Of a stretch of DNA of 64,000 nucleotides, positions 4,662 through 10,834 are shown in pieces (the stretch's first letter is position 1; the number at the start of each line of letters is the position of its first letter). Position numbers and translations under genes: made by a program. Below the pieces are notes generated by a model. That model ran no database searches. It had not been told where the DNA came from and was given only the letters and a program-made list of their open reading frames with translations. The DNA is from a virus, in the IMG/VR virus record IMGVR_UViG_3300022682_000016, positions 1-64,000 of that record. The stretch is one strand, 5' to 3'.

Positions 4662-5228
4662 ATGAAATTATCTGAATATGCTAAAAAACACAGTATTACT
4701 TACAAAACTGCGTTTATTCATTGGCAAAAAGGTTTTATAAAGGGAAAGCAACTACCAACAGGAACGATAGTTGTTTTTGACGAGGAGTGTCTCGAAGTTA
4801 CTGATTATTGTATTTATTGCAGAGTATCTTCTCATGATCAAAAATCTGATCTACTTCGACAAGAGGGGCGATTAAAGGATTTTTGCAGTGCAAAAGGACT
4901 TAAGATAGCAGCTATCTACTCTGAAATAGCTTCAGGACTAAATGATAATAGACCTAAGTTTAATAAAGCTTTAAAAAGTAACCTCAATATCATAGCAGAA
5001 CACAAAGATAGGGTGACAAGATTTGGTTTTAATTACTTAAGTTCATTGCTGACAATGCAAAACAGAAAACTTGTTATAATAAATGATACCGAAAACAATG
5101 ATGACATTATCCAAGATTTTATATCTGTAATCACATCTTTCTGTGCAAGGATATACGGAAAAAGAAGGAGTAAAAGAAAAACAGAAAAACTTATTAAGGA
5201 ACTTAATGAAAATAACGAGAAGCGTTAA
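4662..5228 (+). CDS. tnpA: IS607-type serine recombinase TnpA
   Basis: A 188-residue recombinase. Residues 1-40 form a short MerR-like DNA-binding region. The resolvase catalytic domain begins with YCRVSS, where S56 is the likely nucleophile, and carries the family blocks IASGLNDNRPKF and EHKDRVTRFGF. It cuts and rejoins DNA through a phosphoserine link to move the element between GG dinucleotides. It ends within the start of tnpB (23-nt overlap), so both are probably made from one mRNA. All conserved motifs are intact, suggesting recent activity. Confidence 0.9.
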   Translation: MKLSEYAKKHSITYKTAFIHWQKGFIKGKQLPTGTIVVFDEECLEVTDYCIYCRVSSHDQKSDLLRQEGRLKDFCSAKGLKIAAIYSEIASGLNDNRPKFNKALKSNLNIIAEHKDRVTRFGFNYLSSLLTMQNRKLVIINDTENNDDIIQDFISVITSFCARIYGKRRSKRKTEKLIKELNENNEKR

Positions 5229-6300
5229 ATGTCATTATAGTTGGCTCACTAATAAAAAGAAATTAGAGTTAAGTTCTATTTTAAAAGAATACTCCGAGGT
5301 TGTTAATTGGTTTATTAAAGAATACGAATCTGTTATTCCAGAAAAAACTAAGTACGAGTTAATACTTAAAGAACATATTCATAAAGCAGATACTTGGTTA
5401 TCGGCACGGTTAGTTAAAAACGCTTTTCAAGAGGGTTACACTATTGTTCAAGGAACCAAAGAGTCCTGTAAAGCACTAAACAAATCCTATTCTTCTCCTA
5501 CGCATAAATTAAATACTATGACTGTTTCATGTACTATCGCTACTATTGATAAGAATCCCAGTACTAAAGCTTTTGATTTAAATGTTACTTTGGGTTCTAT
5601 TGGGAATAAAATGAAAATTCATATTCCATTAAAAAAACACAAACAATTTATAAAATGGGACTCATTAGGAAAACTAAATTCAACTGTAACTGTTACTGAT
5701 AAATATATTCAGTTCTCATTTGAAATAGATACTGGAAAAAAGAAAACAAGCGGTGATTTATTAGGTGTTGATATTGGTATGAATAAGTTGTTGGCAACTT
5801 CTGACAATAATATTTATGGAGATCGCACAAGATCTCTTATTGATAAATTAAGAAGAAAAAAGCGTTGTAGTAAGGCATATTATAGATGCAAAGAAGAGAT
5901 AAAAGAATACCTTTGTAAAGAAGTTAAAAATATCCCTTTTAATGAGTTAAGATTATTGGTTTGTGAAAATTTAAAAGGTCTTAAAAATAAGATGAAAGTC
6001 AAACGTCGATTGACCAAAAATATTCGACGAGTTCTCACTAATTGGAACTATAGATTTGTATTGGAAAGGATCAAAGCGTTATGTGAAGAAAACCGTGTTA
6101 GCTTTCGTAGCGTCTTACCATATTACACATCTGTAACATGTTCTAGTTGTGGTCACAGTGAGAAAAGAAATCGGTTAAATCAGGAATCATTTTACTGTGT
6201 GAGTTGTGGTTACTCAGACAACGCAGATTTAAATGCAAGCAAAGTGATACTGGATCGATTTCTTACCGGAAAATATGGTTCCGGTTTCCAAACTTGTTAA
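5206..6300 (+). CDS. tnpB: TnpB RNA-guided nuclease (IS607-associated)
   Basis: A 364-residue protein of the TnpB family, ancestor of Cas12. The RuvC triad is intact: D189 in GVDIGMNK, E254 in VCENLKG and D341 in DNADLNAS. A zinc ribbon with C312, C315, C331 and C334 lies between the last two. The ATG at 5206 is chosen because MKITRSVKC is a normal TnpB-like start. An upstream in-frame ATG at 5143 would only add residues read out of frame from tnpA. TnpB uses an omegaRNA made from the element's right end to cut the empty donor site and so keep the element. The adjacent 3' sequence is a candidate for that RNA. Confidence 0.9.
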   Translation: MKITRSVKCHYSWLTNKKKLELSSILKEYSEVVNWFIKEYESVIPEKTKYELILKEHIHKADTWLSARLVKNAFQEGYTIVQGTKESCKALNKSYSSPTHKLNTMTVSCTIATIDKNPSTKAFDLNVTLGSIGNKMKIHIPLKKHKQFIKWDSLGKLNSTVTVTDKYIQFSFEIDTGKKKTSGDLLGVDIGMNKLLATSDNNIYGDRTRSLIDKLRRKKRCSKAYYRCKEEIKEYLCKEVKNIPFNELRLLVCENLKGLKNKMKVKRRLTKNIRRVLTNWNYRFVLERIKALCEENRVSFRSVLPYYTSVTCSSCGHSEKRNRLNQESFYCVSCGYSDNADLNASKVILDRFLTGKYGSGFQTC

Positions 6301-7211: not shown

Positions 7212-7433
7212 ATGAAAATAATACCTATCGGAACTGGAAGTGCATTCTCACTTAATAATTTTCAAACAAACCTTATTATAGAAAATTCTACCGGTAAACG
7301 TTTACTCATAGATGCTGGAGGAGATGTTCGACACGCTTTGAAAAAATTGGATCTGTCATATAAAGACATTGATGCGGTATATTTATCACACCTTCATGGG
7401 GATCATGTGGGAGGTAGAAGCAGTTTAATATAA
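7212..7433 (+). pseudogene. Metallo-beta-lactamase-fold hydrolase, N-terminal part (split by element 2)
   Basis: After a GGAG ribosome site the frame gives an MBL-fold N terminus: a GTGSAF start like RNase Z, LLIDAGGD, and the metal-binding HLHGDH (H60, H62, D64, H65). Gene sequence stops at GG (7413-7414), where the IS607-type element enters, and only six foreign codons follow. Joining 7212-7414 to 10225-10834 restores one open frame of 270 residues running GDHVGG into VEYLAF. MBL phosphodiesterases of phages include RNase Z-like nucleases and the anti-Pycsar enzyme Apyc1. Which type this was cannot be told here. Confidence 0.85.
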
Positions 7434-7476
7434 AGTTATAAATACTTATAAAAACTTATTGATTTTGGAGGTTAAA

Positions 7477-7653
7477 TTGCGTATATTAAAGGTGTCAAAA
7501 TGTGAATTTGAATTAGATGACGGAAGTGTCTTTCCGATAGACCCTCCATTAGAAAAGGAAATGTCAGTTGAAGAATTTCAAAAACACTATGACTTCGCTT
7601 CTAAGACTATCGGAGGCTGCGGAAAAATTAGGGACAACAACTCAAACTCTTAG
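7477..7653 (+). CDS. Small leader ORF of IS607-type element 2
   Basis: A 58-residue acidic product with an FELDDG-S-VFPIDPPL segment and a VEEFQKHYD helix, resembling a small folded domain. A strong GGAGG at 7467-7471 stands 5 nt before the TTG at 7477, so I choose that start over an earlier in-frame TTG at 7459. It lies inside the element and overlaps the start of tnpA by about 65 nt in another frame, so the two could be translationally coupled. I recall similar short ORFs before tnpA in some IS607 elements but cannot verify that here. Confidence 0.5.
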   Translation: MRILKVSKCEFELDDGSVFPIDPPLEKEMSVEEFQKHYDFASKTIGGCGKIRDNNSNS

Positions 7654-8167
7654 GAATTGGGCTAACTCCGGAAGATTAAAAAGCGTTAGAACGCCGGGAA
7701 ATCAAAGAAGAATATCCTTGTCCGAGATAGAGAGGCTACAGGGTTCTCCAAAAAGAACAAAGTTATTAATCTATGCTAGAGTATCTACGCAAAAACAGAA
7801 AGATAATCTTGATAGGCAGGTTGGACGGCTTCTGGAACATGCAATTACTATTTCTAAAGATTTTGAGTTGTACACAGACATAGGAAGTGGTCTTAATGAT
7901 AATAGAAAATCATTTAAGAAGCTTCTCGTTAGGATATCAGATCCTGATGTAATGGGGATACTCATTGAATATAAAGACAGGATAAGTAGATATGGGTTTA
8001 CTACGCTTGAGACATACTGTAATAATCTTGGTGTTTCTGTGTATGTAATGAATAAATCTGAGTCTCTTGATTTTGAACAGGAATTTTCTAAAGATATAGT
8101 GTCTCTTATAGCATCCTATTCTGCCAGACTTTGCATTAAAAATAGGAGATGGCATGGCAAGGGTTAA
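7589..8167 (+). CDS. tnpA: IS607-type serine recombinase TnpA (element 2)
   Basis: A 192-residue recombinase. The N-terminal MerR-like helix-turn-helix (LLRLSEAAEKLG, residues 4-15, through about 45) is followed by the resolvase domain with YARVSTQ (S66 the likely nucleophile), GSGLNDNRKSF and EYKDRISRYGF. I choose the ATG at 7589 because the helix-turn-helix begins there. An in-frame upstream start at 7568 would add seven residues. It overlaps the endonuclease gene by 14 nt. It shares only family-level motifs with the element 1 recombinase. The motifs are intact, so it is probably active. Confidence 0.9.
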   Translation: MTSLLRLSEAAEKLGTTTQTLRNWANSGRLKSVRTPGNQRRISLSEIERLQGSPKRTKLLIYARVSTQKQKDNLDRQVGRLLEHAITISKDFELYTDIGSGLNDNRKSFKKLLVRISDPDVMGILIEYKDRISRYGFTTLETYCNNLGVSVYVMNKSESLDFEQEFSKDIVSLIASYSARLCIKNRRWHGKG

Positions 8168-8984
8168 ACGAATTTGTCAAAACTGCGGGGGTTCTTTTTA
8201 TATAGACCACTGGAGGCTGAAGGATATGAATCGAGGTAAGTTTTGTTCTAGGGAATGCAGTGGGCGTTCTTTGAAAGAGGTTAATAAAGATTTTTTCAAA
8301 GAACCTTCTGCTAATATGGCGTGGGTAATGGGGCTTATGTTTTCTGATGGGTGTTATTATAGAAATCAATTTTCTATAAAATCTATAGACCGACAACTCC
8401 TTGAAACAGTCAAGAGTGTGATGGAAAGCACCTATACTATACGGCAAACTGAAAAGACTTCAGCTGGGAGTCTTGTCTACGTTTTAGATGTTTGCGGTTC
8501 AAAGTTAGAAGTTACGCCAGAGTACTGGGGAATGCATAGTCATAAAACATTTACTATTAAGTACCCTGAAAATCTGCCGGATAAATATGCCCCTGATTTT
8601 ATCAGGGGGCTGTTCGATGGCGATGGCCATGTTCGTGTTGCTATAGATAAACGTAGGAAAAATAGTTATAGTCGTGAATGGCATTTGTTAGGGACAAAGA
8701 GTTTGTTAATAGAAGTACAATCTAAGCTGCCTGCTCCCTGTAGCTTTACTGATTATAAAAAGATAGCAAAAATTCGTTGTTACTCTATCAGATATTTGAC
8801 TACTCTGTATGAATATTTGTACTATAAAAAAGAGATACCTTGTCTCACTCGCAAACGTCTCAAGTTTGAAGATGCAATAAAAATGTCAGAGGATGTAGAG
8901 GTAAGTTCCTTTGAGAGAGTCAATAGTGTTTTACAAAGTGTCAATAAATATACTCGAAAAAGGTATTATGCATCTTTGTCTTAA
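8154..8984 (+). CDS. LAGLIDADG homing endonuclease with N-terminal zinc knuckle
   Basis: A 276-residue protein with two LAGLIDADG motifs, WVMGLMFSDG (residues 57-66) and FIRGLFDGDG (149-158), whose acidic residues D65 and D157 should bind the catalytic metals as a monomeric double-motif enzyme. Residues 8-35 form a putative zinc finger (CQNCGG followed by CSREC). Such enzymes cut a long site in uninterrupted alleles and spread their host element by repair. Its place between tnpA and tnpB, overlapping tnpA by 14 nt and ending 36 nt before tnpB, is unusual. It may have invaded the insertion element, or it may give the element a second spreading mechanism. The target is unknown. Confidence 0.87.
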   Translation: MARVKRICQNCGGSFYIDHWRLKDMNRGKFCSRECSGRSLKEVNKDFFKEPSANMAWVMGLMFSDGCYYRNQFSIKSIDRQLLETVKSVMESTYTIRQTEKTSAGSLVYVLDVCGSKLEVTPEYWGMHSHKTFTIKYPENLPDKYAPDFIRGLFDGDGHVRVAIDKRRKNSYSREWHLLGTKSLLIEVQSKLPAPCSFTDYKKIAKIRCYSIRYLTTLYEYLYYKKEIPCLTRKRLKFEDAIKMSEDVEVSSFERVNSVLQSVNKYTRKRYYASLS

Positions 8985-9020
8985 CTATGGCAGGAGAGGT
9001 GGAAAGGCTAAGAAAAAGAA

Positions 9021-10199
9021 ATGAATCGTTCTCATAAAATAAGGCTTAGTCCTAATAATAAGCAGATCACTTATTTTAAAAAGGCTTGTGGTTGTGCAAG
9101 GCTTGCTTATAATTGGGGCTTGTCTGAATGGAAGATTCAATACGAAAACAAAGAAAAGCCGTCATCTTATTCTATAAAGAAAAAGTTTAACTCTATAAAG
9201 AAGACTAATTTTCCTTTTGTATATGAAGTGACAAAGACGGCTTGCGAGTCAGCGTTTAGCAACTTAGATAAGGCGTTTAAAGGGTTTTTCAGAAGAGTTA
9301 AGATAAATAAGAAACCTGGATACCCTAAGTTTAAGAAAAAAGGAATCCATGATTCATTTACTATTGATAACTCAAAATTTTCAATTCAAGAAAACAAAAT
9401 AAAGATTCCAAAGCTCGGTTTTGTTAAGATGGCTGAGGGTCTTCGTTTTGATGGAAAGATACTTTCTGCCACTATTTCAAGAACATCTAATATGTGGTTT
9501 GTTTCTATATCTGTTGATATTCCAAATGAGGAGAGTAAAAACCAAGCCTTCTCAGCAGTAGGAATTGATCTTGGTATTAGTAAACTTGCTACATTATCAG
9601 ACGGAACGGTGTTTGAAAATATAAAGACTACCAAAAAATATGAAAGGAGATTAAGAAGAATAAACAAGTCTTTATCTCGAAAGATTGTCGGAAGCAACAA
9701 TAGGTTGAAATCAAAATTTAAATTATCAAGATTGCATTATAAGATAAAATGTGTGCGAAGCGATTTTATTCACAAGATGACACAGACGATATCTGATAAT
9801 TTTACGGATGTTTTTATTGAGGACTTGAATGTTTCTGGAATGGTTAAGAATATGAAGTTATCTAAAGCCATTTCTGATGCATCTTTTTATGAGATACGAA
9901 GGCAACTTGAATACAAGGTTAAAAATGTCCGTACTGTAAATAGATTCTTCCCAAGCACCAAATTATGTTTCGAGTGTGGTACGATACATGAAATGCCATT
10001 AAGTAAAAGAGTTTTTAAATGTGACTGTAATGGAGTCGAAATTGATAGAGATGTTCATGCGACACAAAATATACTACGGCAGGGTTTGTCGAAAGTAAAG
10101 CCTGCGAAGATGGAAGCTCTGGCTGTTAGAAATAACAGTGAAACTACCGTCACTGAAGCAGGAAATCCACGTAAAGGTTTTGAAAGGAAACCCTTCTAA
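9021..10199 (+). CDS. tnpB: TnpB RNA-guided nuclease (element 2)
   Basis: A 392-residue TnpB. The N-terminal OrfB helix-turn-helix region is at about residues 1-95. The RuvC triad is D183 (GIDLGISK), E267 (FIEDLN) and D344 (DRDVHAT). A zinc ribbon (C316, C319, C334, C336) has a shortened C-x-C second knuckle. The C terminus EAGNPRKG matches the common TnpB ending. All catalytic residues are present, so nuclease activity is likely. Only 25 nt separate the stop from the element end, so the omegaRNA must overlap the 3' end of this gene. It is clearly different in sequence from the element 1 TnpB. Confidence 0.92.
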   Translation: MNRSHKIRLSPNNKQITYFKKACGCARLAYNWGLSEWKIQYENKEKPSSYSIKKKFNSIKKTNFPFVYEVTKTACESAFSNLDKAFKGFFRRVKINKKPGYPKFKKKGIHDSFTIDNSKFSIQENKIKIPKLGFVKMAEGLRFDGKILSATISRTSNMWFVSISVDIPNEESKNQAFSAVGIDLGISKLATLSDGTVFENIKTTKKYERRLRRINKSLSRKIVGSNNRLKSKFKLSRLHYKIKCVRSDFIHKMTQTISDNFTDVFIEDLNVSGMVKNMKLSKAISDASFYEIRRQLEYKVKNVRTVNRFFPSTKLCFECGTIHEMPLSKRVFKCDCNGVEIDRDVHATQNILRQGLSKVKPAKMEALAVRNNSETTVTEAGNPRKGFERKPF

Positions 10200-10224
10200 C
10201 TTTTTATAAGTTGGATAAACCAGG
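10100..10224 (+). ncRNA. Candidate omegaRNA / right end of element 2 (overlaps tnpB 3' end)
   Basis: By analogy with TnpB systems the guide RNA should arise from the tnpB 3' end and right terminus, with the sequence after GG (10225 onward, i.e. the interrupted hydrolase gene) acting as guide. The last 50 bases recur at 1729-1778 with 2 changes, showing that this terminal segment has existed as a separate unit. The 5' boundary given is arbitrary. Confidence 0.4.
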
Positions 10225-10834
10225 TGTTGAATATTTAGCATTCTGCTCCTATTTCGACCCTTCCAAAGGACCTAAATCCATAAAACTTATAGGACATCAA
10301 CGAATATTGAGAGATGCTTGGGACAATGCTCTAAAGGCGGGATTACGATCTATCCAAGGAAAAGTTGTTGGGATGGAAGATTATTTCGATGTAAAGCCTT
10401 TGAGTGATAATAGTAGCTTCTACTGGGAAGATATCCAATTCAGTATTGTACAAAGTGTACATATTATGGATGGCTACTCTATCGTACCTTCCTACGGATT
10501 AATGATCAAAGACACGAACAACGATAAGAAGGTTTATATAACATCTGACAGTCAATTCAATCCTAATCAGATTAAAGATTTTTATGACCAAGCAGATATT
10601 ATTATTCAAGATTGCGAGACGGCCCCGTTTCAATCAGGTGTTCATGCCCACTACACCGAACTAGCCACACTCTCAGATAATATTCGGTCAAAAATGATTC
10701 TTATCCATTATCAAGACAACATTATAAATGAGTGGGATAGTTCACAGAAAAAAGCAAAAGGGGATGGATTTATTGGCTTCGCAAAACCAGGCATCGATGT
10801 CTTGACCCAAACAACTGACTCAGAAATAAAATAA
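10225..10834 (+). pseudogene. Metallo-beta-lactamase-fold hydrolase, C-terminal part
   Basis: This is the continuation of the gene broken at 7414. It contains later MBL metal-site candidates: H in SVHIMDG, D in YITSDSQFN, and HAHYTEL plus LIHYQDN near the C terminus. These match the order of metal ligands and the late His seen in RNase Z-like and cyclic-nucleotide phosphodiesterase MBL enzymes. No ribosome site lies ahead of it. An in-frame TTG at 10211 inside the element could at best give a fragment lacking the HxHxDH motif, so it should not be active alone. Confidence 0.85.

What the first reader, a model, noticed from the sequence alone, without database searches (positions are those of the whole stretch)
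7415..10224. An insertion element carrying three different DNA-cutting enzymes: serine recombinase, LAGLIDADG endonuclease and TnpB
Seen: tnpA, a two-motif LAGLIDADG gene and tnpB lie in one element with 14-nt overlap and 36-nt spacing, and all catalytic motifs look intact. Known: TnpB keeps elements at the donor site, and homing endonucleases spread elements into empty sites. Inference: the endonuclease may cut uninterrupted alleles of the target and add a homing pathway to a TnpB element, or it may be a parasite of the element.
Basis: partly seen in the sequence, partly recalled or inferred. Interest (0 to 1): 0.85.

Follow-up and report, generated by a model that had tools for sequence, protein, structure and literature searches.

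The report
Homing endonuclease inside transposase gene
In a phage's jumping gene, a second selfish gene, one encoding a sequence-specific DNA-cutting enzyme, has inserted into the last part of the transposase gene, and four relatives of it sit at the same spot in unrelated jumping genes, so it looks like a parasite that specialises in transposons.

Summary
The three genes are real: an IS607-family element (7415-10224) splits an Apyc1-like hydrolase gene in a tailed-phage contig and carries tnpA, a two-motif LAGLIDADG gene and tnpB. The "36-nt spacer" after it is the displaced tnpA C-terminus (YGRRGGKAKKK, ending in an ATGA overlap with tnpB). Four relatives of this endonuclease, all in IMG/VR contigs, also lie in tnpA at or within a few codons of the same conserved point, SAR(L/Y)^YG. 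One of them has close empty alleles that show a clean insertion. The five endonucleases form one clade (100/99.6) although their host tnpAs are diverged: window and L334 endonucleases are 56% identical, their tnpAs 38%. The many other relatives found are not in tnpA. Best explanation: a freestanding homing endonuclease lineage whose target is the tnpA gene of IS607 elements, a hyperparasite of transposons. It is unlikely to target the hydrolase gene. Cleavage and homing are inferred, not shown. I found no published precedent for a homing endonuclease in the transposase gene of a TnpB-type element.

The parts
7415..10224 (+). IS607-family element (2810 bp) inserted at a GG core in an Apyc1-like metallo-hydrolase gene
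   Evidence: GG at 7413-7414 and 10223-10224; joined flanks restore one hydrolase frame, 97.8 bits to PF23023 vs 41.5/44.9 for halves
7444..7459 (+). left-end subterminal repeat ACTTATAAAAACTTAT, a likely TnpA-binding site
   Evidence: read from sequence; function by analogy
7459..7653 (+). small ORF (64 aa) overlapping the tnpA start; conserved upstream of tnpA in many phage IS607 elements; function unknown
   Evidence: no convincing family match in Pfam/PHROGs/NCBIfam
7589..8167 (+). tnpA, IS607 serine recombinase (N-terminal MerR-type HTH + resolvase domain), C-terminal tail replaced after SARL by CIKNRRWHGKG*
8132..8985 (+). 854-bp insertion in tnpA at SARL^YG (boundary uncertain by about 1 nt): 22 nt with a ribosome-binding site, the endonuclease ORF, 1 nt
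   Evidence: same point in L334, L315, L090, L086
8154..8984 (+). LAGLIDADG homing-endonuclease-like gene, 276 aa, N-terminal four-Cys zinc-finger-like segment plus two LAGLIDADG repeats
8986..9022 (+). displaced 3' end of tnpA (YGRRGGKAKKK...), ATGA overlap with tnpB; no longer joined to tnpA
9021..10199 (+). tnpB, RNA-guided nuclease (392 aa), RuvC-type D/E/D and zinc ribbon present
10198..10224 (+). right end with AACTTTTTATAAGTT (complementary to the left-end repeat) and GG core; probable 3' end of the guide RNA region
   Evidence: read from sequence; the 165 nt ending here fold with z = -2.3
7212..7414 (+). 5' part of interrupted Apyc1-like hydrolase gene
10225..10834 (+). 3' part of interrupted Apyc1-like hydrolase gene

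Best explanation
An intron-less, freestanding LAGLIDADG homing endonuclease gene (HEG) has inserted into tnpA of an IS607 element, between the codons for SARL and YG, just before the turn that splits helix E of the transposase. Shown: insertion point, displaced C-terminus, and four related HEGs at the same tnpA site in divergent elements. Inferred: the enzyme binds the DNA encoding SAR(L)YG in tnpA alleles that lack it and cuts them with a staggered break; repair from the HEG-bearing copy then copies the HEG into the broken tnpA. Its real host is the transposon: IS607 carries the HEG between replicons, and the HEG converts other tnpA copies it meets. TnpA keeps its catalytic domain and the first half of helix E and gets a short substitute tail, so transposition may survive. 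TnpB acts separately, on the insertion site.
For: (1) The tnpA C-terminus is found intact downstream of the HEG; joining it to tnpA scores 228.9 bits in a profile made without the window, against 209.5 as is and at most 218.4 for 281 control joins. (2) The insert is 854 bp with only 23 non-ORF nt, so no intron (Rfam finds none). (3) Four relatives in tnpA: L334 (SARLY^G), L315 (SARL^), L090 (SARY^YG), L086 (right border next to YG; about 75 bp of tnpA lost). (4) L090 against empty relative L255: 94.5% and 97.5% identity up to both borders, about 881 bp inserted, nothing lost. (5) The five HEGs are one clade, 100/99.6; the four nearest viral hits (E <= 3e-52) are all in tnpA, the next hit is at 2e-22, and no other member of the scans lies in tnpA. 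(6) HEG identity window-L334 is 56% over 274 aa, tnpA identity 38%: the HEG moved between elements. (7) L086's tnpA is nested in a 100%-supported clade of tnpAs otherwise without HEG. (8) L314, a HEG-less relative of L315, lacks 4 bp exactly at the site, the overhang length of LAGLIDADG enzymes (established knowledge). (9) Fold and motif residues are those of an active monomeric LAGLIDADG enzyme.
Against: No cleavage or homing was tested. The window tnpA has no close empty relative, so its junction rests on motif and frame. Only five cases are known. L086 and L315 show loss of tnpA sequence at a border, so not all insertions are clean. Target DNA is only moderately conserved (77th percentile of tnpA windows), so recognition of many tnpAs would need tolerance. 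The 4-bp deletion is a single case. Pattern-based scans miss relatives.
Confidence: 0.8

Rival explanations
1. Element mutualism by target homing: the endonuclease cuts empty alleles of the phage hydrolase gene and so spreads the whole IS607 element.
For: The element does interrupt a hydrolase gene, and homing endonucleases can spread flanking DNA.
Against: Relatives of the enzyme are tied to one tnpA site. The HEG interrupts tnpA, not the hydrolase. IS607 inserts with little target specificity, so a fixed-target enzyme would be of little use to it.
Confidence: 0.04
2. Passenger gene: the endonuclease is one of several cargo genes picked up by phage IS607 elements and its position is incidental.
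For: Other phage IS607 elements carry genes between tnpA and tnpB, such as DNA methylases in L011, L018, L025 and a different LAGLIDADG protein in L054.
Against: Those genes lie after a complete tnpA; this HEG lineage lies at one point inside tnpA in five elements and forms a clade.
Confidence: 0.08
3. Useful module: the insertion replaces the second half of helix E of TnpA and the endonuclease removes competing IS607 copies, so the element gains from it.
For: The insertion point is the helix E turn (GRRG/GMRS in PMC6188088), helix E acts in cooperative end binding, and the catalytic part is intact. In L315 the endonuclease has a TnpA-like MerR HTH fused to it.
Against: In L086 tnpA is truncated; most IS607 elements lack the gene; nothing measured.
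Confidence: 0.15
4. Dead relic: a past insertion whose enzyme no longer cuts.
For: HEGs commonly decay after fixation (established knowledge).
Against: Open frame, ribosome-binding site, catalytic residues and a high-confidence fold are kept at 34-56% identity between relatives.
Confidence: 0.1

Closest known systems
Freestanding phage homing endonucleases inserted in coding genes (mobE in nrdA of phage Aeh1, mobA in T4 gene 60; PMC2988022)
   Same: Intron-less endonuclease gene inserted in a conserved coding site; start codon may overlap the upstream gene; the interrupted gene may stay functional
   Different: Those are HNH enzymes in phage housekeeping genes; here a LAGLIDADG lineage sits in a transposase gene and recurs in unrelated transposons
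IStrons (group I intron + IS200/IS605 or IS607 element; PMC4227781)
   Same: A second selfish element combined with a TnpB-type insertion sequence
   Different: No ribozyme here; the extra element is a DNA endonuclease gene in tnpA with 23 non-ORF nt
KolobokP transposons with a His-Me finger homing endonuclease (PMC9587614)
   Same: Transposon that also encodes a homing-type endonuclease
   Different: Eukaryotic DDD/E composite element, other enzyme family; read only as title and start of abstract
I-AniI, I-Tsp061I and other LAGLIDADG enzymes
   Same: Fold, two motif helices
   Different: 13-17% identity; those are intron-encoded; this one has an N-terminal four-Cys segment and no intron
IS607 family (IS1535, ISC1926, ISC1904)
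   Same: tnpA with N-terminal HTH, tnpB, GG core, no terminal inverted repeats
   Different: tnpA interrupted by a third gene

Membership tests
IS607-family element | serine recombinase TnpA with N-terminal MerR-like HTH | tested here: met
   NF033518 168 bits vs 110 cut-off; Resolvase + HTH_17
IS607-family element | GG dinucleotide at both junctions, no target duplication | tested here: met
   7413-7414 and 10223-10224; joined hydrolase frame restored
IS607-family element | transposition by TnpA | not testable with these tools
   catalytic motifs present; tail altered
TnpB (OMEGA) nuclease | RuvC-type D/E/D and zinc ribbon | tested here: met
   GIDLGI, IEDLN, DRDVHA motifs; PF01385 and PF07282 above cut-off
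TnpB (OMEGA) nuclease | guide RNA from the right end | tested here: inconclusive
   no Rfam hit; fold z -2.3
LAGLIDADG homing endonuclease | two LAGLIDADG helices with acidic residues and the alpha-beta-beta-alpha-beta-beta-alpha fold twice | tested here: met
LAGLIDADG homing endonuclease | gene sits in a defined site of which empty alleles exist | tested here: met
   met for relatives: L090/L255, L086/L018, L315/L385, L334/L408; for the window itself inferred from the tnpA motif
LAGLIDADG homing endonuclease | site-specific cleavage and homing | not testable with these tools
   4-bp deletion at the site in L314 is only suggestive
IStron / intron-encoded HEG | self-splicing intron around the ORF | tested here: not met
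   23 non-ORF nt; no Rfam intron in the window
Intein | in-frame insertion spliced from one protein | tested here: not met
   tnpA stop at 8165-8167, HEG in another frame with its own start

The most novel reading that the evidence does not exclude
A lineage of homing endonucleases has specialised on transposons: it recognises the SARLYG-coding site of IS607 tnpA, spreads horizontally among unrelated IS607 elements, and uses the transposons as vehicles between phage genomes. This is three-level parasitism (phage, TnpB transposon, homing gene), with two independent nuclease drives in one element.
Probability: 0.7. Interest if true: 0.8.

Novelty: new variant of a known kind. Interest (0 to 1): 0.75.

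Why it matters
Homing endonucleases are known as parasites of introns, inteins and conserved phage genes; here a clade of them appears to use a transposase gene as its home. That puts a protein-guided drive and an RNA-guided drive (TnpB) in one small element, with different targets, and makes the question of selfish elements preying on selfish elements directly testable. Each claim (cleavage at SARL^YG, transposition with the substitute tail, conversion of empty tnpA copies) can be tested with small DNA substrates and laboratory E. coli.

Tried and rejected
Intron (group I/II) around the ORF: rejected, only 23 non-ORF nt and no Rfam match. Intein or frameshifted TnpA-endonuclease fusion: the HEG has its own start and ribosome-binding site and is in the +1 frame with no standard slip site (from sequence). 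Homing into the hydrolase gene: no support. Single-sequence scans of viral contigs with the HEG or tnpA found nothing; alignment-based scans were needed. phmmer against PDB found nothing real. L054, a HEG directly after an intact tnpA, is a different HEG lineage in the tree and was not counted. L269, L300 and L301 tnpA breaks lie 30 or more nt upstream of the site and have no HEG. Cellular genomes: one scan gave 11 HEGs, mostly in Patescibacteria, none next to tnpA. Named phage and plasmid records have only partial relatives, at most about 36% identity.

Full report
WHAT IS THERE. The window is part of a 90,312-bp virus record with phage DNA polymerase, clamp loader, SbcCD-like and baseplate genes, so a tailed phage; its host is unknown. 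At 7415-10224 an IS607-family element interrupts a metallo-hydrolase gene. The flanks joined at GG give one frame that matches the anti-Pycsar protein Apyc1 with 97.8 bits, against 41.5 and 44.9 for the separate halves.

THE MISSED POINT. Downstream of the LAGLIDADG gene, 8986-9022 reads TAT GGC AGG AGA GGT GGA AAG GCT AAG AAA AAG AAA TGA, that is YGRRGGKAKKKK*, with an ATGA overlap into tnpB. IS607 TnpA proteins normally end SARLYGxRSxK.... The window tnpA ends ...SYSARL and then runs into CIKNRRWHGKG*. So 854 bp (8132-8985, about 1 nt uncertain) have been inserted in tnpA. With a profile built from 70 intact tnpAs without the window, the joined protein scores 228.9 bits, the protein as it stands 209.5, and the best of 281 control joins 218.4. 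The insert is the ORF plus 23 nt, so it is neither an intron nor an intein.

RELATIVES AT THE SAME SITE. Scans of IMG/VR with alignments of tnpA or of the endonuclease found four relatives of this enzyme inside tnpA. L334: tnpA ...SFSARLY, endonuclease 56% identical to the window's over 274 aa, then the displaced tnpA end and the start of a tnpB-like gene cut by the contig end. L315...CFSARL, endonuclease with a MerR-type HTH fused at its N-terminus and a C-terminus made of the displaced tnpA tail seen intact in L385. L090...CYSARY, endonuclease ending in YGARGGRKKK..., the displaced tnpA tail. L086: endonuclease ending in HRSSQNRKKK..., again the tnpA tail, with about 75 bp of tnpA lost on the left.

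EMPTY ALLELES. L090 has about 55 relatives whose tnpA is not interrupted by a HEG. Against L255, identity is 94.5% over the 550 bp up to the left border and 97.5% from the right border, with nothing missing: a clean insertion of about 881 bp. L086's tnpA is 95% identical to that of L018, which is uninterrupted. L408 and L385 are empty relatives of L334 and L315. L314, a HEG-less relative of L315, lacks exactly four base pairs at the site (CGGCTG/GCAAGC, where L385 has CTCTACGGTCG) and is frameshifted by it. LAGLIDADG enzymes leave 4-nt overhangs (established knowledge), so this may be a repair scar; it is one case.

PHYLOGENY. The five tnpA-resident endonucleases form one clade, support 100/99.6, among 50 rows. 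The four best hits of the last endonuclease scan (E <= 3e-52) are these four; the next is at 2e-22, and none of the other viral or cellular relatives lies in an IS607 tnpA. L054 is the only other endonuclease next to tnpA; it belongs to another branch and follows an intact tnpA. Host tnpAs of window and L334 are 38% identical while their endonucleases are 56% identical, and L086's tnpA is nested among HEG-less ones. The endonuclease has therefore moved between elements and landed at the same site.

SURVEY. Of 136 distinct tnpA tails in the loci fetched, 115 keep the motif by a simple pattern test and several more are intact on inspection; five carry the HEG and one has the 4-bp deletion. The DNA at the site is conserved only moderately better than average (77th percentile of 20-nt windows), so a broad host range would need tolerance at wobble positions. 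That is inference.

MECHANISM. Shown: insertion site, displaced tail, shared site in five divergent elements, intact fold and motif residues. Inferred: cleavage of empty tnpA alleles and copying by repair; transport between genomes by the IS607 element. The insertion lies at the four-residue turn (GRRG in IS1535, GMRS in ISC1926) that splits helix E of TnpA; deleting helix E weakens cooperative binding of the ends (PMC6188088). The window TnpA keeps everything before the turn, so it may be active; this is untested. TnpB acts on the insertion site through its guide RNA and is independent of the endonuclease.

KNOWN THINGS. Freestanding endonucleases splitting phage genes are known: mobE in nrdA of Aeh1, mobA in T4 gene 60 (PMC2988022). 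IStrons join group I introns to IS605/IS607 elements (PMC4227781). KolobokP joins a transposase and a homing endonuclease in animals (PMC9587614). Searches of the open-access library found no homing endonuclease in a tnpA of a TnpB-type element; subscription papers and most preprints are not covered.

LIMITS. Nothing was tested at the bench. All five cases come from viral contigs. The window tnpA has no close empty allele. The scans are pattern-based and incomplete, and host organisms are unknown.

Noticed in passing
window 7459-7653; also L018:3820-3996, L012:3562-3774, L061, L318 and dozens more loci: A small ORF (about 55-70 aa, EFExxDGxxxPI...VEEFQxxYD) is conserved upstream of, and often overlaps, tnpA in many phage IS607 elements. 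No convincing match in Pfam, PHROGs or NCBIfam. It may be an undescribed accessory or regulatory protein of these elements.
   Followed up: partly
L011, L018, L025, L052, L054, L089 (region after tnpA): Phage IS607 elements often carry extra genes between tnpA and tnpB: DNA methylases, a 320-aa protein of unassigned function, a 663-aa LAGLIDADG protein.
   Followed up: partly
window 4662-6300: A second, diverged IS607 element in the same phage (tnpA 4662-5228 with SFCARIYGKRRSK near its end, tnpB 5143-6300), without the endonuclease.
   Followed up: no
window 7212-7414 and 10225-10834: The gene broken by the element is an Apyc1-like (anti-Pycsar) hydrolase, so this phage copy has probably lost an anti-defence gene.
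   Followed up: no
L315:4123-5178: The endonuclease is fused to an N-terminal MerR-type HTH that resembles the TnpA DNA-binding domain (Pfam MerR 35.8 bits).
   Followed up: no
L314:4035-4062: 4-bp deletion exactly at the endonuclease insertion site in an otherwise intact tnpA, a possible cleavage scar.
   Followed up: partly
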